Shown here in pieces: positions 6,073-37,900 of a stretch of 64,000 nucleotides of DNA. Position 1 is the first letter of the stretch, and each line of letters begins with the position of its first letter. The notes under the pieces are model-generated. The model did not search any database. It saw only the letters and a program-made list of their open reading frames with translations, and was not told the origin of the DNA. The position numbers were made by a program, and so were the translations under genes. Source of the DNA: Thermomonas beijingensis (lineage in GTDB: Bacteria; Pseudomonadota; Gammaproteobacteria; Xanthomonadales; Xanthomonadaceae); contig NZ_JAIQDJ010000001.1 in NCBI RefSeq assembly GCF_020034655.1, positions 682,001 to 746,000 on the forward strand. The letters are read 5' to 3'.

Positions 6073-7224
6073 TTATGCCACCCTGTTCGTGAAAATTTGT
6101 GTCGCAGGCAGGGTGCGCAGGAAGCTGGTGACTGCCGGGCCAAAGCGGGCGGCGTCGACCAGAAAGGCGTCATGGCCTTGTGGCGAGGGCATGGGCAGAA
6201 AGCGGGTTTCGCAGCCGGCATTGCGCAAACCGGCGGCGATTTCTTCTTGTTGCTGGATCGGGAACAGGATGTCGGTCTTGACCCCGATCACCAGTGCCGA
6301 GTGCACGCCCTCAATCGAGGATAGCCCGTGCAAGGTGTCGCCGCCGTGCGCTTCGCCCAGATCAAACCAATCCATCGAACGGCTCAAGTACAAATAGCAA
6401 TTGGGGTCGTACTTGCGTACAAAGCGGCGGGCGTGGGCTTCCAGATAACTTTCGACTTCAAACTCCAGGCCAAACGGCTCATCGTCCTCGCGCTGCTCGG
6501 CGTCCAGCCGCACGCGGCCAAAGCGGCCGTCCCATTCCAGTGCCGAACGATAAGTCACCACGCCCAGTTTGCGCGCCATGCGCATCCCGTTTTCGGGATA
6601 GTGGTCCTCACTGTAGTCGCCGCCGTTCCAGTGCGGATCGAGGCGAATGGCTTCGCGTTGCAACGAGCGAATCGCAATCGAAAACGGCAGCGCACGCGCC
6701 GCGCCGCAGATATTGATATGGCTGCGGGCGATGCCGGGGTGGCGCGCCAACAACGACAGCGCGGTCATGCCGCCCATCGAATTGCCCAGCACGCAGGCCA
6801 GTTGCTCGATGCCCAGCTCGCGCACAACCGCCAGTGCGGCGTCGGCACCGTCTTCGATGGACAGCTCCGGGAAATCGAGGCGATAGGACGCGCCAGTGTT
6901 GGGGTTGATGCTGGCCGGCCCGGTGCTGCCTTTGCAACTGCCCAGTGCGTTGACGCACAGCACAAACCAGCGCTGGGTGTCGATGGGCTTGCCGGGGCCG
7001 ATCATCCATTCCCACCAGCCAGGTGCGGGGTTGCCAGTATTGGACGCCGCGTGCGCATCCGGCGACATCCCGGTCAACACCAGGATGGCGTTATCGTGCG
7101 CGGCATTCAGCGTGCCCCAAGTTTCATACGCCATGCGCGCGCCGTGTAGCGCGCCGCCGCGCTTGATCGGAAACGGCGAGGGCAGATCAACCCAGCGGGT
7201 GCCGGGCGGGATGAATTCGGCCAT
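6073..7224 (-). CDS. metX: MetX-family homoserine (or serine) O-acyltransferase
   Basis: A 383-residue alpha/beta hydrolase-fold acyltransferase of the MetX family. The nucleophile elbow GNSMGG places Ser149, and the other triad members are Asp318 (GVKTDIL) and His351 (SPQGHDAF). MetX enzymes acylate the hydroxyl of homoserine on the way to methionine. In Xanthomonadales several MetX proteins are reported to be L-serine O-succinyltransferases acting in cysteine synthesis; the GSCKGSTGP segment (residues 95-103) could fit that group, but I cannot decide. The ATG at 7224 gives the normal family length. It is a single gene between the tRNA-Leu and ccm genes on the same strand. Confidence 0.88.
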   Translation of the reverse strand: MAEFIPPGTRWVDLPSPFPIKRGGALHGARMAYETWGTLNAAHDNAILVLTGMSPDAHAASNTGNPAPGWWEWMIGPGKPIDTQRWFVLCVNALGSCKGSTGPASINPNTGASYRLDFPELSIEDGADAALAVVRELGIEQLACVLGNSMGGMTALSLLARHPGIARSHINICGAARALPFSIAIRSLQREAIRLDPHWNGGDYSEDHYPENGMRMARKLGVVTYRSALEWDGRFGRVRLDAEQREDDEPFGLEFEVESYLEAHARRFVRKYDPNCYLYLSRSMDWFDLGEAHGGDTLHGLSSIEGVHSALVIGVKTDILFPIQQQEEIAAGLRNAGCETRFLPMPSPQGHDAFLVDAARFGPAVTSFLRTLPATQIFTNRVA

Positions 7225-7313
7225 GGCGATAACAAGGAAATTGAGCGATGGCCCATCTTCCTCCTTGCTTGTCCTGCCGGTGATGCCGAAACGGCATACC
7301 GTTATGCGTGTAG

Positions 7314-8318
7314 TCAGGGGGTGCCGATCACCAAGTCCACCGCGTCCTTGGCCGGCAAGTGCACGCGCAGTGGTTTGCTTTGCAGGTCACCGGCTTGCGG
7401 CATGGCCTCGCCAGTGGCCGATAGCCGCGCCACCAGTTCCACTTCGGTCATTTGCGAAAGCTTCAAGGTGGGCATGGGGCTGTCGGCGTCGCTGAGGCTG
7501 GCGCTGAACGGGAGTTCGGAGACGGCGTGTTTTTGTGCGGCGACCGGCATCGGCGGGCCGCCCACTTGGCGGGCGATGACAAATACTTTTGCATCCGGCT
7601 GCAAACGCACCCGCGCTGCCAGCGAGGGATCCAGTGACACCTTCACGGTTAGCAGGACGGATGCCGCCGCTGCCGGTGGTGCATCGGGCAGTGGCGGTTG
7701 CCCGGCCAAGTTGCGGGCGACGTTGATTTCCTTGCGCAAGCTGGCGGCGGTGCTGGCATCCACTTGCGCCAACAATGGCGCCCAGGTGGCCGCAGCTTGC
7801 GCATTCTGGCCGGCCTGGCGCTGCGTCACGCCGAGGAACCAACGCGCGCGCTGATGCTTGGGATTGATCTGCAAGGCGCGGTGCAAAAGTGCCAACGCCT
7901 GTGCATCGAAGTTGTGTGCGGCATCGGCCATGGCGCGGGCTTGCGCGGCATCGGTTTGCAGGTCGGCATCGTCGGCGGACAAGGCGGCGGCCTTGGCAAA
8001 CGCATCGCGTGCGCCGCCGGTATCGCCGGTGCGCTGATACGCCTGCGCCAGCAACACCCAACCTTCGGCTTGCTTGGGGTCGCGCGCCAGTGCGGTCTTG
8101 AGTTGTTCGATGGCCGCTTCCAGCGTTTGCGGGGCTTGCCGGGCGGCGGCATCCAGTGCCTGCGGGGTGCCGAGCAATTGATACAGCAAACCGGCCGAGA
8201 GCAGGCTGATGCCCGCAATGCCCAGTGCCACGCCGCGTGCGCTGGCCCACAGCGGGCGCAGCACGGTGGCCAGCACGATCAGGCCCAGGACGATGGCAAT
8301 AACGATGAGTGCGGCCAT
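7314..8318 (-). CDS. ccmI: Cytochrome c maturation protein CcmI (CycH)
   Basis: About 334 residues. Two hydrophobic helices lie near the N-terminus (MAALIVIAIVLGLIVLA and the segment around residue 40), then a periplasmic TPR domain (roughly residues 70-200, with WVLLAQAYQRTGD and ARWFLGVTQRQAG) and a C-terminal beta-rich region. CcmI holds apocytochrome c for heme ligation with CcmF and CcmH. The start at 8318 overlaps the stop of ccmH by one base (TGATG); an ATG six bases upstream (8324) is also possible. It is the last gene of the ccm run. Confidence 0.88.
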   Translation of the reverse strand: MAALIVIAIVLGLIVLATVLRPLWASARGVALGIAGISLLSAGLLYQLLGTPQALDAAARQAPQTLEAAIEQLKTALARDPKQAEGWVLLAQAYQRTGDTGGARDAFAKAAALSADDADLQTDAAQARAMADAAHNFDAQALALLHRALQINPKHQRARWFLGVTQRQAGQNAQAAATWAPLLAQVDASTAASLRKEINVARNLAGQPPLPDAPPAAAASVLLTVKVSLDPSLAARVRLQPDAKVFVIARQVGGPPMPVAAQKHAVSELPFSASLSDADSPMPTLKLSQMTEVELVARLSATGEAMPQAGDLQSKPLRVHLPAKDAVDLVIGTP

Positions 8319-8776
8319 CACCATTCCTGCCCATCGTCGTTGGCCACGTTGCCGGTAGCGGGTTTGCGTTTGCGCACGATGGCGGTGATCGCGCCTGCGC
8401 CCACCAGCAGCAGCAGTGCCGGGCCCACCCACAACAGCCAGGTGCTGCCTTCGAATCTGGGGTTGTACAGCACGAATTCGCCGTAGCGTTGCACCAGGTA
8501 GTCCTTGATCTGCGCATCACTCTTGCCTTGCCGCATCAAGTCCAAGACTTCGTGACGCAGTTGCAGGGCGATCAGCGCGTTGGAGTCGGCCAGCGATTGG
8601 TTTTGGCACATCACGCAGCGCAGTTGCAGGGTCAGCTGATGAAAGCGGGTTTCTTCGCCACTATTGCGAAACACCAAGGGCGCGGCGTCGGTTTGTTGGC
8701 CGGCTTGGGCGAACACCGGCAGCGCGACCGCCAGCGTGGCCAGCCAGAGCAATGCGGTGAGCAGAATCCGCATCAT
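8318..8776 (-). CDS. ccmH: Cytochrome c maturation protein CcmH
   Basis: A 152-residue periplasmic, membrane-anchored thiol oxidoreductase. A signal peptide (MMRILLTALLWLATLAVALP) is followed by the LRCVMCQNQS motif, whose CxxC pair reduces the apocytochrome c heme-binding cysteines with CcmG. A C-terminal membrane helix (STWLLWVGPALLLLVGAGAI) follows. The length matches single-module CcmH, with CcmI as a separate protein. The start is set by the four-base ATGA overlap with ccmG at 8773-8776; the longer upstream frame runs into ccmG. Confidence 0.92.
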   Translation of the reverse strand: MMRILLTALLWLATLAVALPVFAQAGQQTDAAPLVFRNSGEETRFHQLTLQLRCVMCQNQSLADSNALIALQLRHEVLDLMRQGKSDAQIKDYLVQRYGEFVLYNPRFEGSTWLLWVGPALLLLVGAGAITAIVRKRKPATGNVANDDGQEW

Positions 8777-9318
8777 TGCGCGGCCTCGATCTTGCCCAGC
8801 AGCGGCAGCAATTGAGTCTGGATGATGGCATCGGTCAATGGCCCCACATGCTTCCAACGCACGATGCCGTGGCCATCCACCAAGAAGGTTTCCGGCGCGC
8901 CATACACGCCCCAATTCAGTGCGGTGCGGCCTTCCACATCAGACAGCACCACCATGTACGGGTTGCCGAATTGTTCCAGCCAGCGCAGCGCATCGGCGGG
9001 TTCGTCTTTCCAGTTGTAGCCCACCACGCGCAGACGTTTGGTTTCGGCAAAGCGGGTCAATACCGGGTGCTCGACGCGGCATTCCACGCACCAACTGCCC
9101 CACACGTTCAGCAGGAACGGCTGGCCGCGCAGGTCGGACAATTTCACCGTGTAGTTGAGGTCGTGCAGCACCGGCAGCGCGAACTCCGGCGCGGGTTTGC
9201 CGATCAGCGTCGAGGGCAGGGCATCGCGGTCGGGTTTGCGGCTCATCCACACGCCTGCCGCCAACAGCGCGGCAAGCACGGCGAACGCCGCCAACGGCAG
9301 CCAACGGGCGGGTTTCAT
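8773..9318 (-). CDS. ccmG: Thiol:disulfide interchange protein CcmG/DsbE
   Basis: A 181-residue thioredoxin-fold protein tethered to the periplasmic face by an N-terminal helix (WLPLAAFAVLAALLAAGVW). The active site is WCVEC in NVWGSWCVECRVEHP, with the cis-proline loop YGAPET. It reduces CcmH or apocytochrome c thiols for heme attachment. It overlaps ccmF upstream and ccmH downstream by four bases each, as expected for a coupled operon. The family usually has WC-P/V-x-C; the V-E pair is within that range. Confidence 0.92.
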   Translation of the reverse strand: MKPARWLPLAAFAVLAALLAAGVWMSRKPDRDALPSTLIGKPAPEFALPVLHDLNYTVKLSDLRGQPFLLNVWGSWCVECRVEHPVLTRFAETKRLRVVGYNWKDEPADALRWLEQFGNPYMVVLSDVEGRTALNWGVYGAPETFLVDGHGIVRWKHVGPLTDAIIQTQLLPLLGKIEAAQ

Positions 9319-11240
9319 GCGCGCTCCTTGCGAATCGTGCGGAAGCGCTTGTCGGTGGCAGTGATGCCAGCGCCGAGCGCCATCAGCAGCGCGCCGGCCC
9401 AGATCCAGCGCACGAATGGCTTGACATGCACCCGCAGTGCCCAGGTGTTGTTGCCCAGCGATTCACCGAGGGCCACATAGGCATCAGCAAACACGCCACG
9501 GGCGATGCCCGACTCGGTCATCACTTGGCCACCGGCGCGGTAGCGGCGTTTTTCGGGATGCAGCTCCACATCGAAACGGCCGTTGTGCAGCACTTGCACG
9601 GTGCCGTAATCGGACACGTAATTGGGGCCTTGCACGCTGCGAATACCATCGAAGCGGAAGCTGTATGCGCCGAGTGTGACAGTGTCACCGGCTTTGACTG
9701 CCAGCTCGCGTTGCAGGTTCAGGCCTTCGACCAATAACGCGCCGATCAGGAACACCGCGATACCCAGATGGGCCACGCTCATGCCCAGCATTTCGCGGGT
9801 CATGCGCCCGCCCGGTGCGCGCAGGCGCGACCACACAAACCGTAGCGTGCCCAGCGCCACCCATACCGCACCCAGCACACCAGCGGCCACTTTCCATTGC
9901 CCTTGCGGGGCCAGAAAGAACGCCACCACCCCCAACAGCACGGCCAATGCCGCCCAGGGTGCCAGCAGGCGCAGCGGCGAGCTCATCTGTTCACGTTGCC
10001 AGCGGGTCAAGGGGCCCAGCGGGACCAGCGCCACCAGCGGGGCCATCAGCACGATGAACATGATGGCGAAGTAGGGCGGGCCGACCGAAATCTTGCCCAG
10101 CTCCAGTGCGTCGGCCAGTAGCGGATACAGCGTACCCAGCAGCACCATCGCGCAGGCGCAGGCCAGCAACAGATTGTTGAGCAGCAGCAGGGTTTCCCGC
10201 GAGCCGGCGGCGAATGGTTTGGCATTGGATTCGGTATCGGGTGCGCGCAATGCGTACAGCAGCAGCGAGCCGCCAATCACGATGCCAAGGAAGATCAGCA
10301 CGAAGAGGCCGCGCCCGGGGTCGGCAGCAAAGGCATGTACCGAGGTCAGTACGCCCGAGCGCACCAGGAAGGTGCCCAGCAGCGACAGTGAAAACGCGGT
10401 GATTGCCAGCAGCAATGTCCAGCCGCCAAAGCTGCCGCGTTTTTCGGTGACCGCTTGCGAATGCAGCAGCGCGGCACCGGCCAGCCATGGCATGAAGCTG
10501 GCGTTTTCGACCGGATCCCAGAACCACCAACCGCCCCAGCCCAATTCGTAATACGCCCACCACGAACCAATGGCGATGCCCAAGGTGAGAAAGGCCCAGG
10601 CCGCATTCGTCCACGGCCGCGTCCAACGCAGCCATTGTGCGTCGATGCGGCGTTCCAGCAGTGCGGCAATGGCAAACGCAAACGGCACCGCAAAGCCGAC
10701 GTAGCCGGCATACAGCATCGGCGGGTGCATGATCAGGCCGGGGTCTTGCAGCAGCGGGTTGAGGTCGCGGCCTTCGCCGGCGGCGGGCAGCAAGCGCGCA
10801 AACGGGTTGCTGGTGAAAATCAGGAACGCCAAAAAGCCTGCAGCCACAATCCCCATCACGCCCAGCACACGCGCCACCACGGGCTGCGGCAATGCGCTGG
10901 AAAAGCGCGCCACGGCGGCGGTCCACAGCGCCAGCACCAAGGCCCACAGCAGCAGCGAGCCTTCATGCGCGCCCCAGACTGCGGTGTAGCGGTACAGCAT
11001 GGGCAGCAGTGAGTTGGAGTTCTCGGCCACGTATTGCACCGAGAAATCACCCACCACAAACGCATGGGTCAAGATGGCAAACGCCAAGCCCACCAGCAGC
11101 AATTGCATGTAGGCCGCAGGCCGCGCAATGGCCATCAGCGGCGCGATACCGCGCTGCGCACCCAGTAGCGGCAGCAGCGCCTGCAGTGCCGCAACCAGGA
11201 ACGCCAGGATCAGGGTGATCTGGCCAAGCTCAGGCAGCAT
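9315..11240 (-). CDS. ccmF: Cytochrome c heme lyase subunit CcmF
   Basis: A 641-residue polytopic membrane protein. The WWD heme-handling motif is GGWWFWDPVENASFMPWLAG, and many transmembrane helices plus conserved periplasmic histidines are present. CcmF takes heme from CcmE and ligates it to the CXXCH of apocytochrome c with CcmH and CcmI. The start ATG overlaps the ccmE stop (TAATG) and the stop overlaps the ccmG start (ATGA). Length is usual for the family. Confidence 0.95.
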   Translation of the reverse strand: MLPELGQITLILAFLVAALQALLPLLGAQRGIAPLMAIARPAAYMQLLLVGLAFAILTHAFVVGDFSVQYVAENSNSLLPMLYRYTAVWGAHEGSLLLWALVLALWTAAVARFSSALPQPVVARVLGVMGIVAAGFLAFLIFTSNPFARLLPAAGEGRDLNPLLQDPGLIMHPPMLYAGYVGFAVPFAFAIAALLERRIDAQWLRWTRPWTNAAWAFLTLGIAIGSWWAYYELGWGGWWFWDPVENASFMPWLAGAALLHSQAVTEKRGSFGGWTLLLAITAFSLSLLGTFLVRSGVLTSVHAFAADPGRGLFVLIFLGIVIGGSLLLYALRAPDTESNAKPFAAGSRETLLLLNNLLLACACAMVLLGTLYPLLADALELGKISVGPPYFAIMFIVLMAPLVALVPLGPLTRWQREQMSSPLRLLAPWAALAVLLGVVAFFLAPQGQWKVAAGVLGAVWVALGTLRFVWSRLRAPGGRMTREMLGMSVAHLGIAVFLIGALLVEGLNLQRELAVKAGDTVTLGAYSFRFDGIRSVQGPNYVSDYGTVQVLHNGRFDVELHPEKRRYRAGGQVMTESGIARGVFADAYVALGESLGNNTWALRVHVKPFVRWIWAGALLMALGAGITATDKRFRTIRKERA

Positions 11241-17437: not shown

Positions 17438-18241
17438 ATGCAAAACCTCCGCGTCTCCATCGTGCAGGGCGATACCCGCTGGCATGACCCCGCCGGTAAC
17501 CGCGAGTACTACGGCCATTTGATTGCGCCGCTGCACGGCACCACGGATTTGGTGGTGTTGCCGGAAACCTTCACCAGCGGGTTTTCCAACGAGGCCATTG
17601 GCAACGCCGAAGACATGCACGGGCCCACCGTGGCGTGGCTGCGTGCGCAAGCGGTCAAGCTGCAAGCCGCCATCACCGGCAGCGTGCAGTTGCGTACCCC
17701 GGAAGGCGTGTTCAATCGCATGTTGTTTGCCACACCCGATGGCCAATTGATGCATTACGACAAGCGGCATTTGTTTTCCTTCGCCAAGGAGCACGAACGC
17801 TACGCCGCAGGCAGTACGCGGGTGGTGGTGGCGTGGAAAGGCTGGCGCATTTTGTTGCAGGTCTGCTATGACCTGCGCTTCCCGGTGTTTTCACGCAATC
17901 GCTTCGATGCCGATCAAGCCGGGCAGGCCGATTACGATGTGGCGCTGTATGTGGCGAACTGGCCAGCGGTGCGCAGCTACCCGTGGAAAACATTGCTGCG
18001 CGCCCGCGCCATCGAAAATTTGAGCTATGTGGTGGGCGTCAACCGCGTGGGCACCGATGGCAATGGTCTGCAGTATTCCGGTGACAGCGCGGTGATTGAT
18101 TTTCTCGGCCACCCACTCAGCGAAGCCACCGATGCCGAAGTGGTCTCCACCATGCTGCTGCAAGCCGCACCGCTGCTGGAACATCGCGCCAGGTTCCCGG
18201 CATTGTGTGATGCCGATGGGTTTGGGCTGGGCGTGGATTAG
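17438..18241 (+). CDS. Nitrilase-family amidohydrolase, omega-amidase (YafV) like
   Basis: A 267-residue carbon-nitrogen hydrolase with the Glu-Lys-Cys triad: Glu43 (VLPETFTSGF), Lys109 (HYDKRHLFSF) and Cys143 (QVCYDLRFPVFSRN). The spacing and the RFPVFSRN segment point to the omega-amidase/YafV branch, which removes ammonia from alpha-ketoglutaramate or alpha-ketosuccinamate. The start is 16 bases after the msr stop, so it is probably the last gene of the aminotransferase operon. That context supports an aminotransferase-omega-amidase couple. Confidence 0.87.
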   Translation: MQNLRVSIVQGDTRWHDPAGNREYYGHLIAPLHGTTDLVVLPETFTSGFSNEAIGNAEDMHGPTVAWLRAQAVKLQAAITGSVQLRTPEGVFNRMLFATPDGQLMHYDKRHLFSFAKEHERYAAGSTRVVVAWKGWRILLQVCYDLRFPVFSRNRFDADQAGQADYDVALYVANWPAVRSYPWKTLLRARAIENLSYVVGVNRVGTDGNGLQYSGDSAVIDFLGHPLSEATDAEVVSTMLLQAAPLLEHRARFPALCDADGFGLGVD

Positions 18242-18325: not shown

Positions 18326-21300
18326 ATGCCATACATTTCGCTATGCCAATTATTACAAAGATTACTAGCCCTCGCACTGCTTTTGAGTGGCATGACATAT
18401 ATACCTATGGTTCATGCCAACGGAATTTGCGGGCAGGGATATATAATGGGGATTGTCACGACCAAAGATCCGAAAACTAATAAAGTCAGTACAAGTGTGC
18501 AATGCGTACGGATGGATGTTATCAGTACGAGAGGTGGAGGCGCAGGTGGCGGAGGCGGTGGGGGTGCTGGCGGCTCAGGAGGACATACCTCCCATTTGTC
18601 CATGTCGGATGGCGGCGCAGGGTTCATAGGCAGCAAGGATTCTGGTGACGCGGACCAGACAAAGCTCCCGTGCGGGAACCCGGTCATCATCGACAACGGC
18701 AACAAAATTGAACCCGAATCAGACTTTGATACGTCTGGCGAATTTCCATTGCAGCTGACGCGCACCTACAACCACATGTGGAAAGGTGCGGGATTATTTG
18801 GCCGCTATTGGAACAGCAGCCTGGACTACAAGCTCACGTTTGGCGGCATGGAGTTGAATGCCTGCTATCCAAGACCGGGTGGCGGTACATGTACCATCGG
18901 CGCGGCAACCAGCATCTTTGCCTGGCGTCCTGATGGGCGCGTCGTGAAGTATGTCAAAGCAGCCGATGGCGTCTTCTACGAGAACAAGGCGGATCCGGTG
19001 GCACGGATCGTGAAGGAAACAGACGGCTCATTTACACTGCATGCCGATGACGACAGTACAGAAACCTATACCGCGTCCGGCTATATTTCAACCATCTCCA
19101 ATGCACAAAAAATCCGCTGGACATTCACTTACACCGGTACGACCTATCCGTATCGCGTCACCCATACATCGGGTCGATATATACAATTTACCTGGTCGGG
19201 AACGCAACTGACCCAAGTGCAGGATCCTGCCGGAAACTTGTACAGCTATTCGTATTCCGCGAACCAGTTCGGCACCGGCCTGCATCGATTGGCTGCAACA
19301 ACCTGGCCCGGGACACCCAACACAATCATCACCTACCACTATGAACTTTCCAACGATGCAAGCGCACTGACAGGCAAATCGCTGGGTGGCCTGCGTTATT
19401 CCACCTTCACCTACGATTCGACTGGACGTGCGACCAGCACCCAGCACAACGGATTCAACAAGTTCACTTTCGCCTATTCCACTGGTGCCGGGGGCACCGC
19501 GAACACCACGGTCACCAATCCCTTGGGCAAGCAGACGACATTTGTCCACGAAGGCGGGAAACTCAAGGCCGTGTCTGGTTCGCCCAGTGCGTACTGTCCT
19601 CTCACAACGCATGTGCTGACCGAATACGATGCAAACGGCTATCCAGCCCTGGCGCAGGATGCCAACGGCAACTTCACTGCATACAGCTACAACGCGAAAG
19701 GGCAATTACTCAGCCTCACCGAGGCTTATGGAACACCGCTGGCAAGGCAAGCGACGTACGTCTGGGATACGGGTTTCAATCGCGTGAAAGAGGTTGCAAA
19801 CACCGACCGCAAACTCGTCTATACCTATACGGCTGACGACCGTGTTGCCAGCATCTCCGAAATCAATCTGGGTGCGCCATCGCCGGCCACCAACCTCAAC
19901 GAGGTGCGTACAACAACCTTCACATACACCAAGCATGCAAACGGCATGCTGGCGACGATGACAATCAATATGCCATCCGCGGGAGGAAGCACAACCAACA
20001 CCTATGACGCGCTGGGCAACACGGTGTCGATCAGCAACAACCTTAATCACACCACGTCATACGCCAGCCACAGCGGCAACGGTCTTCCCGGGTCCGTCAC
20101 TGGCCCCAATGGAGATACTCATGAGTATGCCTACGATGCGCAAGGGCGCGTACTGACATTCAGGACGAAGTACAACGGATCAACGCAGAACTACATCTAC
20201 ACCTATAACGGCGACGGAAATCTATCGAGCATGGCAATGCCGGATGGTCAGTCGCGCACGTTCTATTACCATCCCGGCAACCGGGACTGGTTGAGCATCA
20301 TGCAAGACAGCAGGGCCCCTTGGCTGGGGCAACCCGCTTGGGACGGCATCAGTTGGACCCGGGATGCTGCCGGAAACGTCACACAGATTCGTACATACAT
20401 CAGCCACGACACCCCGCAGCCTTGTTCGCCAACCCCCTGCAGCCCACAAGGCGCACCAGAATCCGGCGAGGTGACGGGTGTACAGGACGTGCTGGCATTC
20501 GCACCATCATCGGTGCAGTCACCGGTGATGGCCGCCCTTGGCGGAGGGGGGTATATCGAAGATCTGAAAACACAAACGTTCATCGACTACGATGAGCTCA
20601 ACCGCGTTCGCGCACGTCGCGGCAATAATCAGCAGAACGTCCGCTACACCTATGATGCAAATGGAAATTTGGAGACGATCACCGACTCCCTCAACAACAT
20701 CACTCGGTTCACCTACGACGCCCTCAACCGAGTCATTGAAAACCGTGACCCGAACAATGAATCAACCCACTTTGCCTATGGCATCGCATCAGACAACATC
20801 GTTCGCGTAACGGATCCACGAGGAAAGCAGACCCACTACGTGTACGACGGATTCGGTCAACTGTGGCAGCAGGACAGCCCGGATACGGGAATAACCCATT
20901 ACACCTACGATGCACAAGGCCGGCAGACATCGATGACGCGGGCAAGCAATCAGGTCACGGCCTATACGCACGACAGTCTCGGCCGCTTGACGGGTGTTTC
21001 CGCAGACGGTTCCACACAAGCATTTACCTACGACACCTGCGCCAACGGCAAAGGCCGGCTGTGCATGGTCAGCGACCCTACGGGGAGCGCCAGCTTCAGC
21101 TACACCCCGCAAGGCCAGGTGCTGTCGCAGTCCAGCACCCTGCCAGCAGGGGGCACCGGTACCCTTGCCTACACCTATGACCTGATGGGCCGGCTCAGCA
21201 CCATCACCTACCCGGATTCCACGCTTGCCTCATACACCTACGCATACGGCAAGCCCGTGTCGATGAAAGCCACCATCAACGGCGCAAACCAATCCATCCT

Positions 21301-22705
21301 CACCCTGGCACAGAACCTGCCCTTCGGGCCTGCCACCCAATGGACGTACGGCAACGACGTCCGCCGTACCTATGCCTATGACCTGGACGGGCGCATCACA
21401 GGCGTTGGCGCAGGGGTACTGGCACAACCGCCGCTGCAGAGTCTGACGTATGGCTACAACGCCAACGACAACATCGCCCGGATCACCAACGGCATCAACG
21501 CCAGCCTGACGCAAGACTACGGCTATGACGCTCTGTCCAGGCTGACATCGGCAATGGCCACCGGCGCAAACCAGTCATTTGCTTACGACGCCAGCGGCAA
21601 CCGCACCCGCCATACCCGCAACAGCGCCATCGACACCTACACCATTGCGGGGACAAGCAACCGCTTGCTGTCCCTCGCCGGCGGCGTGTCGGCCAGCTTC
21701 GCCTACGACGCAAACGGCAATGTGACATCGGGTGACGGCAACAGCTATACCTACGACGCCTTCAACCGGATGGCCACGGCAACGCGGGCCGGAGTAACCA
21801 CCAGTTATGCGGTGAACGCCCTTGGCCAGCGGGTCTACAAGCAGGTGGGCGGGGTGGGTTCCTGGTTCCTGTATGGCGCAGGCAACACGCTGCTGTCTGA
21901 ATTCAGCACGGGACAGGGTTGGACGCACTACCTCCCGTTTGCGGGTGAACGAGTAGCGATGGTGCGGGGTGGCCAGGTGTATTACCTGCACAACGACCAT
22001 TTGGGGCGGCCGGAGATTGCGACCAACAGCGCGAAGGCCGTGGTGTGGCGTGCCAACAACGATGCATTCGACCGGACGGTGACGCTGGACGCCATCGGCG
22101 GATTGAACCTGGGCTTTCCGGGGCAGTATTTCGATGCCGAGACCGGCCTGTGGAGCAACGGATTTCGCGATGGCTACGACAGCAAACGTGGCCGCTATCT
22201 GCAATCCGATCCGATTGGGTTGGCGGGGGGTGTGAATACGTATGCCTATGTTTCCTCGAATCCAATCAGCAATATTGACCCCCTTGGGCTCGTAGATTGG
22301 AATGTTGGGACTTGGCAGATCAATGTTGGAAAAGGCCTCTTTGGAGCGGGAACAGGTCGTTTTACCGCAACCTCGGAATGCGTAGATGGCAAGTTCGCTG
22401 TCGTGTCTGGAGTTTTCAGCTTTGCTGGCGCAGGGTTTTCAGTTCCCGGAGTACAGGGGGCAACAAGCAAATTTTATGATGGAAATTCAAAGATAGACCC
22501 GAGTGTATTCAATGGTGGTTATGTCTCTTTGTCAGTATCAGCCTCTATCGGAGGTGGGATTGGATATTCCGCAACGAGAATTGGCGATGTCAAATCGGAT
22601 TTCAGTTTTGGAGCTGTAGGTGGGATTGGGGGCGGAACAAGTGCGGATTTTGGCGCCGCAGAAACAACCGGAGCAAACTTCTACAAATGCGGTTGCAGCA
22701 AATGA
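18326..22705 (+). CDS. Secreted RHS/YD-repeat protein with variable C-terminal tip
   Basis: A 1459-residue RHS-family protein. A Sec-type signal peptide (residues 1-32, ending VHANG) is followed by a glycine-rich stretch (about 70-90), a DUF6531-like region ([20 protein letters not shown]), many YD repeats ([15 protein letters not shown]) and the RHS core ([16 protein letters not shown] to [15 protein letters not shown]). The core ends at DPLGL (residues 1318-1322). The last 137 residues are an unrelated glycine/serine-rich, beta-type tip of lower GC, as expected of an exchangeable toxin domain. I do not recognise its activity. Start: ATG with an AAGGA site seven bases upstream. It overlaps the next gene by four bases (ATGA). 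Confidence 0.9.
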
Positions 22706-23001
22706 TTAGTTTATTGGGGGTTCTCTTTTTATTTCTTGGCCTTGTTTCTACTGTAGGCCGGATTTCGTTGTTTAGTTCCATTCGAAGAAGGTATCCGGTG
22801 GCCTACAAGAAGATAGGATCACCTTCTGTATATTTCATCAACTTTAATCCGGTCATCCCTCTCTCTGTAATTGAGATGGATGTTGGCAGCGAAGATTTTT
22901 CATCGTATAAAAGAATAAGATTTGCAATTATCGTTGCTGAAATGCTACTTGCTGCCTTTATTGTGGTTTTTGCATATCTCATATTTCTAGATTGGATTTA
23001 G
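22702..23001 (+). CDS. Small membrane protein, candidate RHS immunity protein
   Basis: A 99-residue protein starting [20 protein letters not shown], with an N-terminal helix and a C-terminal helix ([20 protein letters not shown]) around a soluble middle. It overlaps the RHS stop by four bases, so it is translationally coupled to the toxin tip. That is the normal place of an immunity gene in RHS/polymorphic toxin systems. No family is recognised; immunity is inferred from position, size and low GC. A membrane immunity protein would suit a tip that acts on membranes or in the periplasm. Confidence 0.6.
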
Positions 23002-23606
23002 CTAACATCTATACCTGTGACGGAAGGAATCCGGTTCCCCTCGTTGACCCGTGGGGCTTGGATGGTGCCGGTATGGGTTGGACGCCAGAGCAAATGCACC
23101 AAATGGGTGAGGCACACGGCAAGTACATTCATGATTATTCGGCAGGTTTGAGAGATTTTCTGTGCAACTATCTTGATATGCGAAATTTCAATACGATTGA
23201 TGTAGATAAATATTTTCACTACAAAGCTAATTGTGAGGCTACTAAGCAGGGTCAGGGAGGCAAGGGTGCAGCTTGCGATGTCAGCAATACACGAGAGAAA
23301 TTTGACCAGAACGTGAAAAGAGACCCAGCCTCTGCATCGGCGGCAGACCGGCAGACCAAGCTGCCAACATCTTCGGTCGCAGTAACGCTGGCTCAGGAAC
23401 CTGCAGCCAAGTATGTTCTGTGCACCGCCCATCGGGCTTGGGGTCGGAGTACTAGCATGAGGAAGGCGATGCAAGTAGCAGTGGTTCTGATTATTTTTTT
23501 AGTGGTGATCATGGTCGGATTTTGGATCAAACGCCAACTTTCTATCGACAGCTGCCTTGATGAGGGGGGTAAATGGAACTACTCACTATCAAGCTGCGAT
23601 AGATAA
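22992..23606 (+). CDS. Orphan RHS C-terminal tip (displaced toxin cassette)
   Basis: The frame opens with [20 protein letters not shown], which matches the end of an RHS core (N-x-Y-x-Y-x3-N-P-x-x-L-V-D-P-x-G-L) but has no repeats before it and no convincing start codon; the first possible start is a TTG. The tip after DPWGL (about 120 residues) has a Cys-containing segment (YFHYKANCEATKQGQGG, AACDVSNTREKFDQNV). It then runs on in frame into a small membrane protein. This is what a displaced cassette left behind by tip replacement looks like: silent unless recombined into a full RHS gene. No toxin family is recognised with certainty. Confidence 0.5.
   Translation: MDLANIYTCDGRNPVPLVDPWGLDGAGMGWTPEQMHQMGEAHGKYIHDYSAGLRDFLCNYLDMRNFNTIDVDKYFHYKANCEATKQGQGGKGAACDVSNTREKFDQNVKRDPASASAADRQTKLPTSSVAVTLAQEPAAKYVLCTAHRAWGRSTSMRKAMQVAVVLIIFLVVIMVGFWIKRQLSIDSCLDEGGKWNYSLSSCDR
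23457..23606 (+). CDS. Small single-helix membrane protein with C-x-D-x-G-G-x-W motif
   Basis: An internal ATG, preceded by GGAG seven bases upstream, starts a 49-residue protein: MRKAMQVAVVLIIFLVVIMV (one helix), then SIDSCLDEGGKWNY and a second Cys near the end. Small proteins of this form occur beside RHS cassettes and may be their immunity partners. It is in the same frame as the orphan tip, so it could also be just its tail; the ribosome site favours a separate gene. Confidence 0.45.
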   Translation: MRKAMQVAVVLIIFLVVIMVGFWIKRQLSIDSCLDEGGKWNYSLSSCDR

Positions 23607-23768
23607 GAAATACATATCCGGAAGCTTCGAAAAATACGGGGCTTCTTTATCCAGCTCTCATGCATGATATTTGATGATCAGGCGATCCAGCACTTCGCGC
23701 ACCACGCCTATTCGTTGATAAAATACGAAACATCAACAATTTGGTATGAAAGCAGTCGCCACCGCCTA

Positions 23769-23845
23769 TCCCCTTTGGATATTCCACCCAATGGGCGTAC
23801 GGCAACGACGTCCGCCGTACCTATGCCCTATGACCAAGGCGGGCG
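23769..23845 (+). pseudogene. Broken fragment of an RHS core
   Basis: Bases 23784-23845 nearly repeat bases 21333-21393 of the intact RHS gene, coding for [13 protein letters not shown]. There is one early substitution (tggacg to tgggcg) and one inserted C that shifts the frame, then divergence. Matching codons of the upstream PFG segment begin near 23769. It is a remnant of a second RHS copy. Confidence 0.75.
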
Positions 23846-23873
23846 AAAAACGGGGAAAACGGGGTCATAAGAA

Positions 23874-24470
23874 TTGAAGCCGGAGATGTTGAAAGAGTCA
23901 TATTCCCCGCTGGATGCTGATCGTTTTGCTCTCGCGTGGTCGCCCTCTCAGAGAGGGAGCAAACGTCAAGCAGTTGAGCTTGGCCAGGAACTAGTGCGCG
24001 ATGGCTATAAGCCCGCGCACTTGCTGATGGGATTGATTTATGAGTTTGGCGGTGACGGAATAGAAGTAGATCTATCCAAGGCAGTCGATCATTATCGAAT
24101 GACCGCCTATGCGATTCCGTCTCCGATTGGCTATATCCATTTAGCTCGGGCACTAATGAAGAAAGGTAAGGAAAGTTATCCGGAGGCCCTTAGATATCTG
24201 AAAGAAGCTGACAGGGAGGGAGCCACCCCAGAGTTGAATCTCGCTTATGCCAAGTATTATGAGCCCGCCTCTGTGCCCGACTACGCGACCGCACAGCAAC
24301 ACTATCTGAAAGCTGCGCTACGTGGTCGATTCATGGGGTTCTTTGGATATGCAACGATGTCGAGAAGACTGGGGCAGCATTTCAGGGCATTGCTGGTTGA
24401 TTGCACTCGGACCGCGCTAGGCCCTTTCATCTTCTTGCTTCTTGGAAAAACAGCAAGAAAAGGGTTTTAG
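23874..24470 (+). CDS. Sel1-like repeat protein
   Basis: About 198 residues with three helical Sel1/TPR-like units: AHLLMGLIYEFGGDGIEVDL with a DLSKAVDHYRMTA tail, IHLARALMKKGKES with YPEALRYLKEAD, and LNLAYAKYYEPAS with YATAQQHYLKAAL. A hydrophobic C-terminus (GPFIFLLLGK) may touch the membrane. Such proteins often sit at the end of RHS or T6SS effector arrays, as adaptors or immunity factors, but no role is shown. The start is unsure: TTG at 23874 or ATG at 23886. GC is lower than in neighbouring housekeeping genes. Confidence 0.65.
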   Translation: MKPEMLKESYSPLDADRFALAWSPSQRGSKRQAVELGQELVRDGYKPAHLLMGLIYEFGGDGIEVDLSKAVDHYRMTAYAIPSPIGYIHLARALMKKGKESYPEALRYLKEADREGATPELNLAYAKYYEPASVPDYATAQQHYLKAALRGRFMGFFGYATMSRRLGQHFRALLVDCTRTALGPFIFLLLGKTARKGF

Positions 24471-33368: not shown

Positions 33369-34841
33369 ATGCATAGCCCGTATCCACTGTTTGATCCTGC
33401 GGCACTGCGCGAAATGGAAGCACGCGGCGCGCATTATTTTGATGGCGATGCCTTTGCATTGATGGCGCGTGCCGGGCAGGCCGGTTGGCGCTGCCTGCTC
33501 AAGCATTGGCCGCAGGCACTGCGGATTGTGGTGGTGTGCGGGCCGGGCAATAACGGTGGCGATGGCTATGTGCTGGCGCGGCATGCGCACACTGCGGGGC
33601 GTACGGTACGTGTGGTGCAGCTCGCGCCACCTGCAACCCCATTGGCACAGCGGGCATGCGCGGAGTATGTCGAAGCGGGTGGCGCGTTTGGCCCTGCATT
33701 GGGTGATTGCGATGTGATTGTCGATGCACTGTTCGGCATTGGCCTGTCGCGTCCGTTGGATGCGGTCACTGCGGCACATATCGACGCGATCAATGCGTAT
33801 CCCGCCAAGGTGTTGTCACTGGATGTGCCCAGTGGCATCGATGCGCGCAACGGGCATGCGGTTGGCATGGCCATCCTGGCCGATGTGACGGTGCAATTCC
33901 TCGCCCGGCACCGTGGCTTGCGCACCGGCATGGCCTTGGATCATTGCGGGAAATTGGAGTTGGCGGGATTGGACTTGCCCGAGGCATTGTGGACGGGTAT
34001 TGCACCGTCGGCGCTGGCGTTTCGTGCCGATGCCTTGCACGAGTGTTTGCCGCTGCGCCCGCGCAATGGCCACAAAGGGCGCAATGGCCATGTGCTGTGC
34101 ATCGGCGGCGAACATGGCAGCGGTGGCGCGATTGTCCTGGCCGCGCAAGCCGCGTTGCGCACGGGGGCCGGCTTGGTCAGCGTGGCGACGCGTGCCATGC
34201 ATGTGCCAGCGCTATTGGCGCGCTGCCCGGAAGTGATGGCGCATGCCGTGGAAAGCAGTGCCGAGTTGCTGCCATTGTTGGCACGTGCCGATGTGATTGC
34301 CATTGGCCCCGGTTTGGGCCAGGGCGAGTGGGGCCGGGCGATGCTGGCCGCTGTGCTGCACGCGCTCACGCCGCGGGTGCTGGATGCCGATGCGCTCAAT
34401 CTGCTGGCCGCATCTGCCACGACACTGGGCGAGGACGACATCATCACCCCGCATCCAGGCGAAGCCGCACGCTTGTTGGCAACCACCACGACGGATATTC
34501 AAGCCGATCGCTTTGCGGCAGCCACTGCCTTGCAGGACAAGTTCGGCAGCAGCGTGGTACTGAAAGGTGCGGGCAGCCTGGTGCAAGCGGCGGGCAGCGT
34601 GCCGGCGGTGATTGGCGCCGGTAATCCCGGCATGGGCGTGGGCGGCATGGGCGATGTGTTGACCGGCGTGATTGCAGCCTTGCGCGGGCAAGGTTTTGCA
34701 GCACCAGCGGCGGCCACCATCGGCGCACTGCTGCATGCCGCCGCCGGCGATGCGGCCGCATTGGACGATGGCGAGCGCGGCTTGTTGCCCAGTGATTTGC
34801 TGCCTTGGCTGCGCAGATTGGCCAATCCAGTGCGACGGTAA
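33369..34841 (+). CDS. nnrD: Bifunctional NAD(P)H-hydrate epimerase/dehydratase
   Basis: A 490-residue two-domain repair enzyme. The N-terminal YjeF_N epimerase domain (to about residue 210) contains GPGNNGGDGYVLARH and DALFGIGLSRPLD. The C-terminal ADP-dependent dehydratase has GHVLCIGGEHGSGGA, PHPGEAARLL and GNPGMGVGGMGDVLTG. Together they restore damaged hydrated NADH and NADPH. The ATG at 33369 has a GGAG site eight bases upstream. In many gammaproteobacteria tsaE follows directly; here recC comes next after 120 bases. Confidence 0.94.
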   Translation: MHSPYPLFDPAALREMEARGAHYFDGDAFALMARAGQAGWRCLLKHWPQALRIVVVCGPGNNGGDGYVLARHAHTAGRTVRVVQLAPPATPLAQRACAEYVEAGGAFGPALGDCDVIVDALFGIGLSRPLDAVTAAHIDAINAYPAKVLSLDVPSGIDARNGHAVGMAILADVTVQFLARHRGLRTGMALDHCGKLELAGLDLPEALWTGIAPSALAFRADALHECLPLRPRNGHKGRNGHVLCIGGEHGSGGAIVLAAQAALRTGAGLVSVATRAMHVPALLARCPEVMAHAVESSAELLPLLARADVIAIGPGLGQGEWGRAMLAAVLHALTPRVLDADALNLLAASATTLGEDDIITPHPGEAARLLATTTTDIQADRFAAATALQDKFGSSVVLKGAGSLVQAAGSVPAVIGAGNPGMGVGGMGDVLTGVIAALRGQGFAAPAAATIGALLHAAAGDAAALDDGERGLLPSDLLPWLRRLANPVRR

Positions 34842-34961
34842 TGTCGCTGATTCACGCCGCCTCCCTCTATGGATTCGAGGAATCGCTCTCAACTCATGTT
34901 GCGTCGCAGCCGATGAGATGCCGCTGTGCTCAAATGGCGTTTCAGATCCGAGGGCCGACGG

Positions 34962-37900
34962 TTGAATACTGCTGAACACGATGCGGGCCTGATCCTGCTG
35001 CGCGCCAGCCGGCTGGAGGCGTTGCTGGAACCACTGGAATCCCTATTGGCGCAAACGCGGCCGGTGCACCCGCTGGCCCCGCAGACGGTGATCGCCGCGC
35101 ATCCCGGCATGAAGCAATGGCTGGCCGGCGCACTGGCACGGCAGGTGGGCGCAGGCCGCATCGTTGCCAATCTGGATGTGCAATTGCCCAGCACTTGGCT
35201 GGACCGGCTTTCGGCCGATCTACTGGACGCACGCGCGGTGGCCCTGCCGAATTACCGCCGTGGGCATCTGCGCTGGACCCTGCACGCGATGCTGGGCGAT
35301 CCGTCCGCGCATGGCGTCACCGACCCACGCGTGCTGTCCTACCTGGACGCTTCGGCCAGCGCCGATGAGCGCGCTCTGCGCCGCTTCCAACTGGCCGACC
35401 GGCTGGCGCGGGTGTTCTCGCAGTACCTGGTGTATCGCAGCGACTGGCTGCAGGCCTGGGAGGCGGGCAAGCACGCCTTCGCCACCGCCAAGCATGGTGA
35501 TGCGGCGTTGAGGGCACTGGAATCGGCCTGCCTCGCGCCGCTCTGGCAGGCGGTCGTCACAGCGCTGGGTGAGCATCGCGGCCGCTTGGTCGATGCGCTG
35601 GTCTCGGCACTGCAGGCGGATCCCGCGCCGCGCGCGCCGCTGCACGTGGTGGGTCTGTCGCACCTGCCGCCGGCGGAACTGTCGGTGCTGCGGGCCTATG
35701 CGCGCCGCGCGCCGGTGTTCCTGTACGTGCCCGATCCCTGCCGCGAGTACTGGGGTGGCCTGCACAGGGCGACGGGGCAGGGCGGCTGGCGCAAGCCCGA
35801 TGCGTCCGGTTGGCAAGCCTTCCGCGATGAAGAGCAGGCGCGCTTCGACGATCCCGGCGCGCTCGACTGGCGCGATCAGGGTCATCCGCTGCTGGCGCGC
35901 TGGGGGCGCCTGGGCCAGCACTTCTTCGCCGCCCTGGTGGACGGCGAGCTGCGCGAAGATATCCGCCACTGGCAGGACGACGGCGCCGGCACGCCGCCCG
36001 ATCGACTGGCGCGCCTGCAGGACAGCATCCGCCGCTTGCAGCCGGAGTTGCTGCAGGAGGATGCGGTCGCCGCCAATGCCACGGCCGATCCCAGCCTGCG
36101 CATCCACGCCTGCCACACCCGCCAGCGCGAGCTCGAAGTGCTGCGCGATGCGCTGCTGGATGCCATCGATAAAGCGGGGGTGCGTCCCGGCGATATCGCG
36201 GTGATGGCACCCGACATCCAGGCCTACCTGCCGTTGATCCCGGCGGTGTTCGGTGAGCCGGGCTCCGCGCGCGAGCGGCTGTTGCCCTACCACCTCGCCG
36301 ACGTGCCCGTCGCCCGCAGTCATCCGCTGTTTGCCGTGTTCGACACCCTGCTGGGGCTGGGCGCATCGCGCATCACCGCGCCCGAGGTGGTGGACCTGCT
36401 GGGCGTGGCGGAGGTGCGCGCCGCCTTGGGACTGGATGCGGGCGATGCCGATATCCTGGTCGAATGGCTGCGCAACAGCCGCGTGGCCTGGGCGCTGGAC
36501 GCTGCGCACAAGCAGGCACTGTCGCTGCCGGCGCGCGCCGAGCACAGCTTCGCCTGGGCGATGGACCGGCTGCTGGCCGGCTACCTGATGGCCGACGTGC
36601 CGGGCGGGATCGATCCGCAGCCGGTCACGCTGCCCGATGGCACCGCACTGCTGCCACTGGCCGGCATCGAAGGCCCGTCCGCGGCGGCGCTGGGCAGTCT
36701 GGACCGGCTGCTGTGCGAGCTGCAGGCGTGGCGCGACCTGGCCCCGATCGAACAGCCGGCAAGCCGGTGGGCGACGGTGCTGCGCGAGCGCGTGGACGCG
36801 CTGCTGCGCATCGACCGCACCGATGCCGACGCCCGCGCCGCGCTGTCGGTGGTGCATCGCGCGATCGCCCAGCTCGCCGCGGAACCGGCGCGCAACGGCG
36901 AGGACCCCGCGCTGCGCATGCCGGTGGTGTGTGAGCTGCTGCAGGACGCGCTGGCCGCCGCGCCGGAGCGCCAACGCTTCCTGATGGGCGGCATCACCTT
37001 CTGCGGCATGGTGCCGCAGCGCGCGATCCCGTTCGCCATGGTCTGCGTGTTGGGGCTGGACGAAGGCGCGTTTCCGCGCCGGCCATCCGATGGCGGCATC
37101 GACCTGATGGCGCGCCTGCGCCGCCTCGGCGACCGCGACGTGCCCGGCGACGACCGCTACCTGTTCCTGGAAACCGTGATGTCCGCGCGCAAGCGGCTGC
37201 ACCTGTCGTACATCGGCCAGGGCGCGCGCGACGGCAAGCACCGCAACCCGGCCGCGCCGCTGGCCGAGCTGCTGGCCGAACTCGACCGTGCCTGCGGCAA
37301 CGCGCCCGATGACGACAAGGCGCCGCGGCCGTGGCTGGTGCGACATCCGCTGCAACCGTTCGACGGCCGCTACTTCGACGGCACGCATCCGGCGCTGTTT
37401 TCGTTCTCGCCGGCATTCGCGGGCATGCGCGGGGCGGGCAGGGGAACGCTGCCGCGCCTGCGCGACGGCAATCTCCCCGTGCCGGAACCGCTGCCGGAGC
37501 CGCTGCCGCTGGCCACGCTGGAAGGCTTCTTCAAGGACCCGGCCAAGGCGCTGTTGAAGGAGCATCTGCAGCTGTCGCTGGATGCGCTGGACGACGACGT
37601 GCGGCTGGCGGAAGACGAGCCGATGGATGCGATTTCAAGGATCCACGCGGTGGCGCGCACGGTGTTCCTGCAGCAGGTGCTGCCGCGCAAATGCGGCGAT
37701 CCCGCGTGGGCCTGGGACCGCCAGCCGCCGGCGTGGGTGGGGCTGGGCGGGCTGTTGCCGCTGGGCGCGGCCGGTGAAGCCGCATGGGCGAAGGAAGCGG
37801 ACGCAGTGGATGCGCTGTGGAGCCAGGCCGATGCCTGTGGCCGCTTCGATGCGCGCGGCGAGCACGGCGGCCAGGCGATAAGGATCGACGTGCCGCTGGT

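What the first reader, a model, noticed from the sequence alone, without database searches (positions are those of the whole stretch)
18326..24470. RHS toxin locus with displaced cassette and debris
An intact RHS gene with a Sec signal is followed by a coupled membrane-protein gene (putative immunity), an orphan tip beginning at NPVPLVDPWGL, a small membrane protein, a broken RHS core fragment and a Sel1-repeat gene. This is an array in which tips are exchanged. Neither tip is assignable by me, so the toxic activities may be new.
Basis: partly seen in the sequence, partly recalled or inferred. Interest (0 to 1): 0.65.

Follow-up and report, generated by a model that had tools for sequence, protein, structure and literature searches.

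The report
RHS toxin array with SAA-like cassette
A bacterium carries a secreted RHS toxin gene and, just behind it, the decayed remains of a second toxin whose active part is a relative of human serum amyloid A, followed by an intact tiny membrane protein that in many other bacteria sits beside the same toxin and probably protects against it.

Summary
The locus is real: an RHS polymorphic-toxin array. The main gene (18326-22705) has a Sec-like signal, 14 RHS-repeat stretches, a full Rhs core and a glycine-rich tip; neither that tip (bar one chance-level match) nor its overlapping membrane partner had a relative in 398 genomes sampled. The 'unassignable' orphan tip is assignable: a serum amyloid A domain (Pfam PF00277, 71 bits, cut-off 30.8), a predicted lipid-headgroup enzyme already in print as a toxin tip ('prok-SAA', Lipocone superfamily, eLife 2025). 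Its frame is broken inside the fourth helix, so the sNxxGR motif and the tail are lost; the 49-residue membrane protein behind it is an intact ORF. Relatives suggest that this is the tip's usual partner: 29 of 47 complete SAA loci carry a small membrane-anchored protein with C[LM]DxGGxW within 600 nt downstream, against 0 in 666 kb of the rest of those loci. Three viral SAA loci of one scan have it, three of a second do not, and the family also occurs away from SAA genes. RHS debris (75 bp, 87%) is real; Sel1 is below cut-off. Same-genus genomes carry similar arrays with other tips. Toxicity and immunity remain inferred.

The parts
18326..22705 (+). main RHS gene, 1459 aa: Sec-like signal, Gly-rich linker, DUF6531, 14 RHS-repeat stretches, Rhs-associated core with DPIGL...DPLGL junction at residue 1322
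   Evidence: signal peptide and linker by eye
22292..22702 (+). main tip (tip1), glycine-rich, some strands in a model of very low confidence, ends in CGCSK; unassigned
22687..23001 (+). 104-aa protein with two hydrophobic stretches (by eye), start overlapping the RHS stop by 19 nt; candidate immunity for tip1; no relative found
23028..23348 (+). orphan tip, first part, beginning at the NPxxxxDPxGL core boundary; serum amyloid A domain with the H, E and (at its very end) D positions
23351..23455 (+). tail of the same SAA tip in another frame (sNxxGR motif, cysteines, C-terminal RPxGL...EY)
   Evidence: E 0.013 for the 34-aa piece alone
23457..23606 (+). 49-aa single-pass membrane protein, outside part IDSCLDEGGKWNYSLSSC (topology by hydrophobicity and charge only); candidate immunity protein of the SAA tip; GGAG seven bases before its ATG (by eye)
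23771..23845 (+). remnant of RHS core DNA
   Evidence: 65 of 75 identical to 21320-21393, E 3e-20
23874..24470 (+). Sel1-like ORF (198 aa, TTG start), possibly the leftover immunity gene of a lost tip
   Evidence: Sel1 26.2 bits, below the 30.7 cut-off; a lipoprotein that looks Sel1-like by eye follows another RHS tip of this genome

Best explanation
This is a chromosomal RHS polymorphic-toxin locus of the Sec-exported kind (no PAAR domain found). The main RHS protein is exported, forms the RHS shell and carries tip1, which is released at the DPLGL core boundary and attacks neighbouring bacteria; the overlapping 104-aa membrane protein protects the producer. Behind it lies a displaced older cassette: a tip that is a serum amyloid A (prok-SAA Lipocone) domain and its own immunity gene. 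The SAA domain is predicted to cut or swap phosphate-linked headgroups of membrane or carrier lipids at the outer face of the inner membrane. Its neutraliser is a 49-residue membrane microprotein that shows only about 20 residues with a C-x13-C loop (IDSCLDxGGxWNY) to the periplasm. Here the toxin frame is broken inside helix H4, right after the catalytic aspartate, so the sNxxGR motif and the tail are lost and the orphan tip is most likely dead, while the immunity gene is an intact ORF and may be kept as an orphan immunity gene. Shown: anatomy, SAA homology, fold of an intact relative, frequent pairing, frame break, RHS debris, similar arrays in the genus. Inferred: toxicity, enzymatic activity, immunity, topology, direction of cassette displacement, expression.
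For: RHS anatomy. SAA: PF00277 71.1 bits, 1 place in the genome; a profile of four bacterial tips (window's first part included) finds human SAA1 at E 2.9e-24; a model of an intact relative (L014, mean pLDDT 84.7) matches mouse SAA3/human SAA1 at Z 18.5/18.3, rmsd 1.1 over 103/104 residues, 44/47% identity. H57, E83, D100, N104, G107, R108 (L014 numbering) are invariant in the 34 tips that I aligned out of 47 complete ones, the H-E-D triad and sNxxGR of the Lipocone paper (PMC12419801 section 7 and passages). Pairing: 29 of 47 complete tips (3 of 50 loci are cut before the stop) are followed within 600 nt by C[LM]DxGGxW; 0 in 665,938 other strand-bases of the same loci (the motif was chosen); C-x13-C in 28 of 29 plus the window. 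Three viral SAA loci have the partner directly behind, profile E 9e-11 to 1e-7. SAA is fused to a peptidoglycan-binding domain in 5 of 10 selected ORFs. In the genus arrays one tip is an M15/VanY-type carboxypeptidase and several next ORFs have lipobox-like starts by eye.
Against: No experiment shows toxicity of an SAA tip or protection by the microprotein; the searches listed none that I could recognise. The microprotein profile also hits 15 of 298 other genomes of the phylum (E up to 0.01; 4 genomes below 1e-6), and none of these 16 loci holds an SAA DKYxH or RHS-core motif within about 1.5 kb, so the family has other lives. 18 of 47 tips lack the strict motif: 8 have a different lipoprotein-like partner (by eye; exact LDTN in 6 of the 8), 5 a relaxed motif by eye of which the profile confirms L041 only, 2 other membrane-type proteins, 2 nothing seen, 1 no room. 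None of three further viral SAA loci fits: L141 and L142 have a longer four-Cys protein (L142 E 0.041, L141 no hit there), L143 shows none. The orphan shares no significant DNA with the main gene at its boundary, so recombination into it looks hard. The H, E and D residues all stay in the first frame, so a residual activity of the truncated tip is not strictly excluded. Tip1 and its partner have no convincing relatives.
Confidence: 0.7

Rival explanations
1. The microprotein is not an immunity protein but a partner that helps the SAA domain act or travel (a lysis- or membrane-delivery factor, holin- or spanin-like, or a small regulator like MgrB), kept next to SAA genes for that reason.
For: In phage-like stretches a peptidoglycan-binding SAA gene and the microprotein gene overlap, between head and tail genes in L135 and L045 and between two tail genes in L136; profile members occur without an SAA neighbour; weak MgrB match of the L012 copy, E 0.11.
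Against: A gene directly behind a polymorphic-toxin tip is in the usual immunity position (PMC12419801, PMC3967940); 8 tips have a different lipoprotein-like protein in the same place; the MgrB score is far below its cut-off (12.7 against 40).
Confidence: 0.2
2. The frame break is a sequencing or assembly error and the orphan tip is an intact cassette.
For: Both frame pieces match consecutive parts of PF00277; the assembly has 60 contigs.
Against: The break coincides with the only exact 8-bp tandem duplication in 64 kb, which looks like a slippage mutation rather than a homopolymer error; the nearby debris also speaks for decay.
Confidence: 0.15
3. Tip1 is not a toxin but a structural or adhesive glycine-rich end of a secreted RHS protein, and the 104-aa protein is unrelated to immunity.
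For: Weak matches to tape-measure proteins (PHROG E 0.0029; PDB E 0.022); no toxin family matched.
Against: Architecture, position after the core, the membrane gene overlapping by 19 nt, and genus arrays in which some tips in the same place match peptidase-type families; the weak matches may reflect composition.
Confidence: 0.25

Closest known systems
prok-SAA toxin tips of the Lipocone superfamily (Burroughs, Nicastro, Aravind, eLife 2025, PMC12419801; sections 7, 29, 30 and passages seen)
   Same: SAA domain as the tip of a polymorphic toxin, H/E/D and sNxxGR positions, membrane-anchored partner gene next door
   Different: Here displaced and frame-broken; the partner has two Cys and about 20 residues outside the membrane, whereas the prok-SAA immunity named in section 30 is an alpha-helix plus four strands with four conserved Cys
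Orphan rhs-CT/rhsI modules of Salmonella LT2 (Koskiniemi et al. 2014, PMC3967940; abstract and passages seen)
   Same: Displaced tip plus linked immunity gene downstream of a main rhs gene
   Different: No long stretch shared with the main gene (there 522 bp at 95%), and the toxin frame is broken
RHS proteins with SAA motif in EHEC (PMC7216683; passages seen)
   Same: PF00277 in RHS C-terminal regions
   Different: Those are PAAR-Rhs T6SS candidates discussed as possible immune modulators; this RHS has a Sec-like signal and no PAAR
Animal serum amyloid A
   Same: Fold, and 44-47% identity of the L014 relative
   Different: Animal SAA is a secreted blood protein, not a toxin tip (recalled and PMC12419801)

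Membership tests
RHS polymorphic toxins | RHS/YD repeats and Rhs-associated core with DPxGL boundary | tested here: met
   14 repeat stretches; TIGR03696 67.5 bits, cut-off 32.5
RHS polymorphic toxins | variable C-terminal tip between related RHS genes | tested here: met
RHS polymorphic toxins | toxic tip neutralised by the adjacent gene | not testable with these tools
   only adjacency and overlap seen
T6SS PAAR-Rhs effectors | N-terminal PAAR domain | tested here: not met
   no PAAR family at E up to 1; a T6SS cluster exists elsewhere in the genome (other genes by eye)
Serum amyloid A / prok-SAA | PF00277 above cut-off | tested here: met
   71.1 bits against 30.8
Serum amyloid A / prok-SAA | SAA fold | tested here: inconclusive
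   met for the intact relative L014; the broken window tip itself was not folded
Serum amyloid A / prok-SAA | H (H2), E (H3), D (H4) and sNxxGR in one frame | tested here: not met
   H, E and D in 23028-23348, AANIFGR in another frame. Homologous, but not an intact member
Lipocone enzymes | lipid headgroup chemistry | not testable with these tools
   prediction of PMC12419801
Orphan rhs-CT cassettes | displaced tip with a linked immunity gene | tested here: inconclusive
   displaced tip and linked gene present; that the gene gives immunity rests on pairing in relatives
Orphan rhs-CT cassettes | homology to the main gene that allows recombination | tested here: not met
   only 8 of 19 residues at the boundary (E 0.40); the 75-bp debris lies behind the tip
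Four-Cys Lipocone immunity domain (PMC12419801, item iii) | four conserved cysteines | tested here: not met
   two Cys in the window protein; a remote link through L010 and L129 (profile E 2.7e-4, 3.4e-5) is possible
MgrB | NCBIfam NF007635 | tested here: inconclusive
   no hit for the window protein, E 0.11 for L012's copy

The most novel reading that the evidence does not exclude
Serum-amyloid-A toxins across several bacterial phyla and some of their viruses share one tiny immunity system: a membrane-anchored microprotein, mostly 44 to 82 residues long, whose whole business end is a C-x13-C loop with CLDxGGxW, which plugs an SAA lipid-headgroup enzyme in the periplasm and can outlive its toxin as an orphan shield, as in this window.
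Probability: 0.4. Interest if true: 0.62.

Novelty: new variant of a known kind. Interest (0 to 1): 0.45.

Why it matters
What serum amyloid A does at the molecular level is an old open question (recalled; PMC12419801 proposes lipid-headgroup chemistry). A bacterial SAA toxin with a frequent small neutraliser candidate would give a genetic assay for it in E. coli: does an SAA domain attack lipids, which residues matter, and can a short loop block it? The microprotein had no Pfam match, one NCBIfam match far below cut-off and one unnamed PHROG family below E 0.001 (phrog_12086) here. The main tip and its partner are without convincing relatives in the genomes sampled.

Tried and rejected
Tip1 relatives: plasmids and phages none; 99 relatives, own only; 398 phylum genomes, own plus G108 at E 0.0018 (32% over 56 aa), whose neighbourhood looks like housekeeping genes by eye, so taken as chance; viral contigs none; fetched loci by phmmer, nothing beyond that hit below E 0.5; genus tips, best E 0.062. 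Its single-sequence model has pLDDT 35.6 and was not searched. The 104-aa partner: own genome only, 1 of 398. SAA in plasmids and phages: no match with the window piece (plasmids), L135's protein (phages) or P0001.

Empty-site comparison: the nitrilase neighbour (17438-18241) is present in 25 of 25 same-genus genomes; in 20 fetched stretches downstream of it (two short, L091 and L104) neither RHS nor NorB gave a hit, so no clean empty site was obtained.

MgrB kinship of the microprotein and a paper search with it (none) led nowhere. In the structure comparison only SAA chains stood out; Wnt, TelC or PTDSS did not appear in the lists, which tests nothing about them. A paper search for a CxC tail on RHS toxins listed one paper, seen as a listing only. 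The organism was not identified.

Full report
Anatomy. ORF calling confirms a 1459-aa RHS gene at 18326-22705 and, overlapping its end by 19 nt, a 104-aa ORF at 22687-23001. The RHS protein has DUF6531 (residues 117-174), 14 RHS_repeat stretches and an Rhs-associated core ending at residue 1322; by eye it has a Sec-type signal, and no PAAR family was found at E up to 1. The tip (1323-1459) is glycine-rich and ends in CGCSK.

The orphan tip. The 204-aa ORF 22992-23606 matches Pfam SAA (serum amyloid A) at 71.1 bits, E 1.1e-19, profile positions 3-80 of 102; it is the only SAA match in the genome. The missing end of the domain is there in another frame (23351-23455; 34 residues, E 0.013 alone, positions 76-102). 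A short exact tandem duplication sits at the break, the only exact 8-bp one in the window. The catalytic H, E and D positions stay in the first piece, the D as its last residue; the rest of helix H4 with the sNxxGR motif and the tail are out of frame. After the break the first frame runs on into a separate 49-aa membrane protein (23457-23606), which has its own ATG with GGAG before it (by eye).

Homology and fold. A profile of four bacterial tips, the window's first piece included, finds human SAA1 (4ip8) at E 2.9e-24. A model of the intact tip of L014, made with 34 aligned relatives (mean pLDDT 84.7), matches mouse SAA3 and human SAA1 with Z 18.5 and 18.3, rmsd 1.1, 44 and 47% identity; unrelated chains fall to Z 4.9 and below. 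In these 34 tips, of 47 complete ones, H57, E83, D100, N104, G107 and R108 are invariant, the positions that the Lipocone paper gives as active site and sNxxGR (PMC12419801, section 7 and passages). In all 47, DKYxH stands in 47, partly by construction since the scan used a DKY..H pattern, sNxxG[RLQ] in 44 and the wider D..sN...G pattern in 40. The window's own broken tip was not folded.

Distribution. SAA is rare: 2 of 299 genomes of the phylum, 3 of 369 of the class and 1 of 25 of the genus, own included each time. A scan of named genomes gave 50 loci in Pseudomonadota, several delta lineages, Acidobacteria, Nitrospira/Nitrospirota, Campylobacteraceae, a cyanobacterium and a Bacteroidales MAG (many are MAGs). 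By hand, 33 of 47 complete tips follow an RHS-type boundary and 4 a stretch like a peptidoglycan-binding domain; Pfam confirms PG_binding_1 in L039, L045, L058 and the viral L135, L136, 5 of the 10 ORFs given (the fourth by hand, L056, was not scanned).

The partner. Of 50 loci, 3 end before the tip's stop. Of the other 47, 29 carry C[LM]DxGGxW within 600 nt downstream on the same strand; the same motif occurs 0 times in 665,938 strand-bases of the rest of these loci (motif chosen after on the same loci). The proteins have an N-terminal hydrophobic stretch (one, L044, has a start called too late and one, L029, holds Ns) or, in L014-L017, a lipobox, and C-x13-C in 28 of 29 and in the window's copy. 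Sixteen aligned copies share D31, C33, L34, D35, G37, G38, W40 and C47. Of the 18 others, 8 have a second, lipoprotein-like partner (by eye; exact LDTN in 6 of 8), 5 a relaxed motif by eye (the profile confirms L041 only), 2 other membrane-type proteins, 2 nothing seen, 1 no room. Three viral contigs (L134-L136) have the partner directly behind SAA (profile E 1.2e-7, 9.2e-11, 1.6e-10; the strict motif in two of the three). None of three more (L141-L143, new among six loci) fits: L141 and L142 have a longer four-Cys protein, L143 none seen. The profile also finds 15 of 298 other phylum genomes, 16 loci; none of these loci shows an SAA DKYxH or RHS-core motif within about 1.5 kb, and 4 of the 16 hold the strict motif; those opened are free-standing small membrane proteins where an ORF with the motif was seen. 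So the pair is common but exclusive on neither side.

The array. Twelve of 25 same-genus genomes, own included, have RHS genes similar to the window's core. In L169, L171 and L174, three of eleven stretches fetched, RHS genes or core fragments stand in a row with different tips and mostly an overlapping or close next ORF. Tips there include an M15/VanY-type carboxypeptidase and HExxH proteins matching eCIS_core, and several next ORFs look like lipoproteins by eye, so this RHS type may be aimed at the cell envelope. The window thus shows one full cassette (tip1 plus 104 aa), one displaced and decayed cassette (SAA plus microprotein), 75 bp of RHS core and a Sel1-like ORF below cut-off that may be a third immunity relic; a lipoprotein that looks Sel1-like by eye also follows another RHS tip of this genome.

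Mechanism. Best reading: exported RHS shell, tip released at DPLGL, tip1 acts at or across the membrane; the SAA tip once attacked lipid headgroups outside the inner membrane and the microprotein blocked it there; now only the shield is an intact ORF. The target is inferred from the Lipocone paper, the predicted outside position of the partner's loop and the peptidoglycan-binding fusions. Nothing here measures toxicity, and the truncated SAA piece keeps its three catalytic positions, so its death is likely, not shown.

What is known and what is new. SAA tips are in print (PMC12419801 sections 29, 30 seen; PMC7216683 passages seen). Section 30 of PMC12419801 names for prok-SAA a four-Cys immunity domain; a two-Cys CLDxGGxW microprotein is not in the passages and sections I saw, nor did I recognise one in the listings; the supplements could not be opened. 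Displaced tip-immunity modules are in print (PMC3967940, abstract and passages seen). New here: the count and anatomy of the microprotein pairing, its viral and peptidoglycan-binding settings, and an unassigned tip. Hence a new variant of a known kind.

Noticed in passing
L135:3749-4517, L136:3650-4466 (viral contigs); L045:3704-4511, L039:3809-4616, L058:3743-4645: PG_binding_1-SAA proteins with the microprotein directly behind (a longer Cys-rich protein in L058, outside the profile); between head and tail genes in L135 and L045, between two tail genes in L136. Could be a phage lysis or exclusion pair.
   Followed up: partly
L141:3638-4321, L142:3335-4333 (viral contigs): SAA behind a stretch with an HPNCKC motif that looks like a phage minor-head (MuF-type) protein by eye, followed by a four-Cys membrane protein.
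   Followed up: partly
window 22685-22702; L145, L146, L147, L152, L157, L171: 8 of 15 distinct same-genus RHS tips end in CxC within the last 8 residues against 12 of 893 other mechanical ORFs of at least 100 aa. Two pairs of the 8 are nearly alike, so about 6 tip types; the pattern used dropped one more tip ending CGCAN (L169). Unexplained.
   Followed up: partly
L019, L021, L022, L027, L028, L034, L057, L062, L013: A second partner type behind SAA tips, about 146-209 aa, lipoprotein-like, with WxPxxLPxSA and mostly LDTN; no Pfam family above cut-off in the four scanned (L019, L022, L028, L034).
   Followed up: partly
L112:1295-2104 and 6848-10174: The end of another RHS gene of this genome and its neighbour lipoprotein occur twice in one contig end, either a true duplication or an assembly repeat.
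   Followed up: no
L116:2528-13328: A T6SS cluster (several Tss genes by eye; VipB by profile) lies elsewhere in the genome, although the RHS of the window has no PAAR.
   Followed up: no
window 34001-44000: Block of higher GC (0.65-0.72) than most of the window (about 0.60).
   Followed up: no
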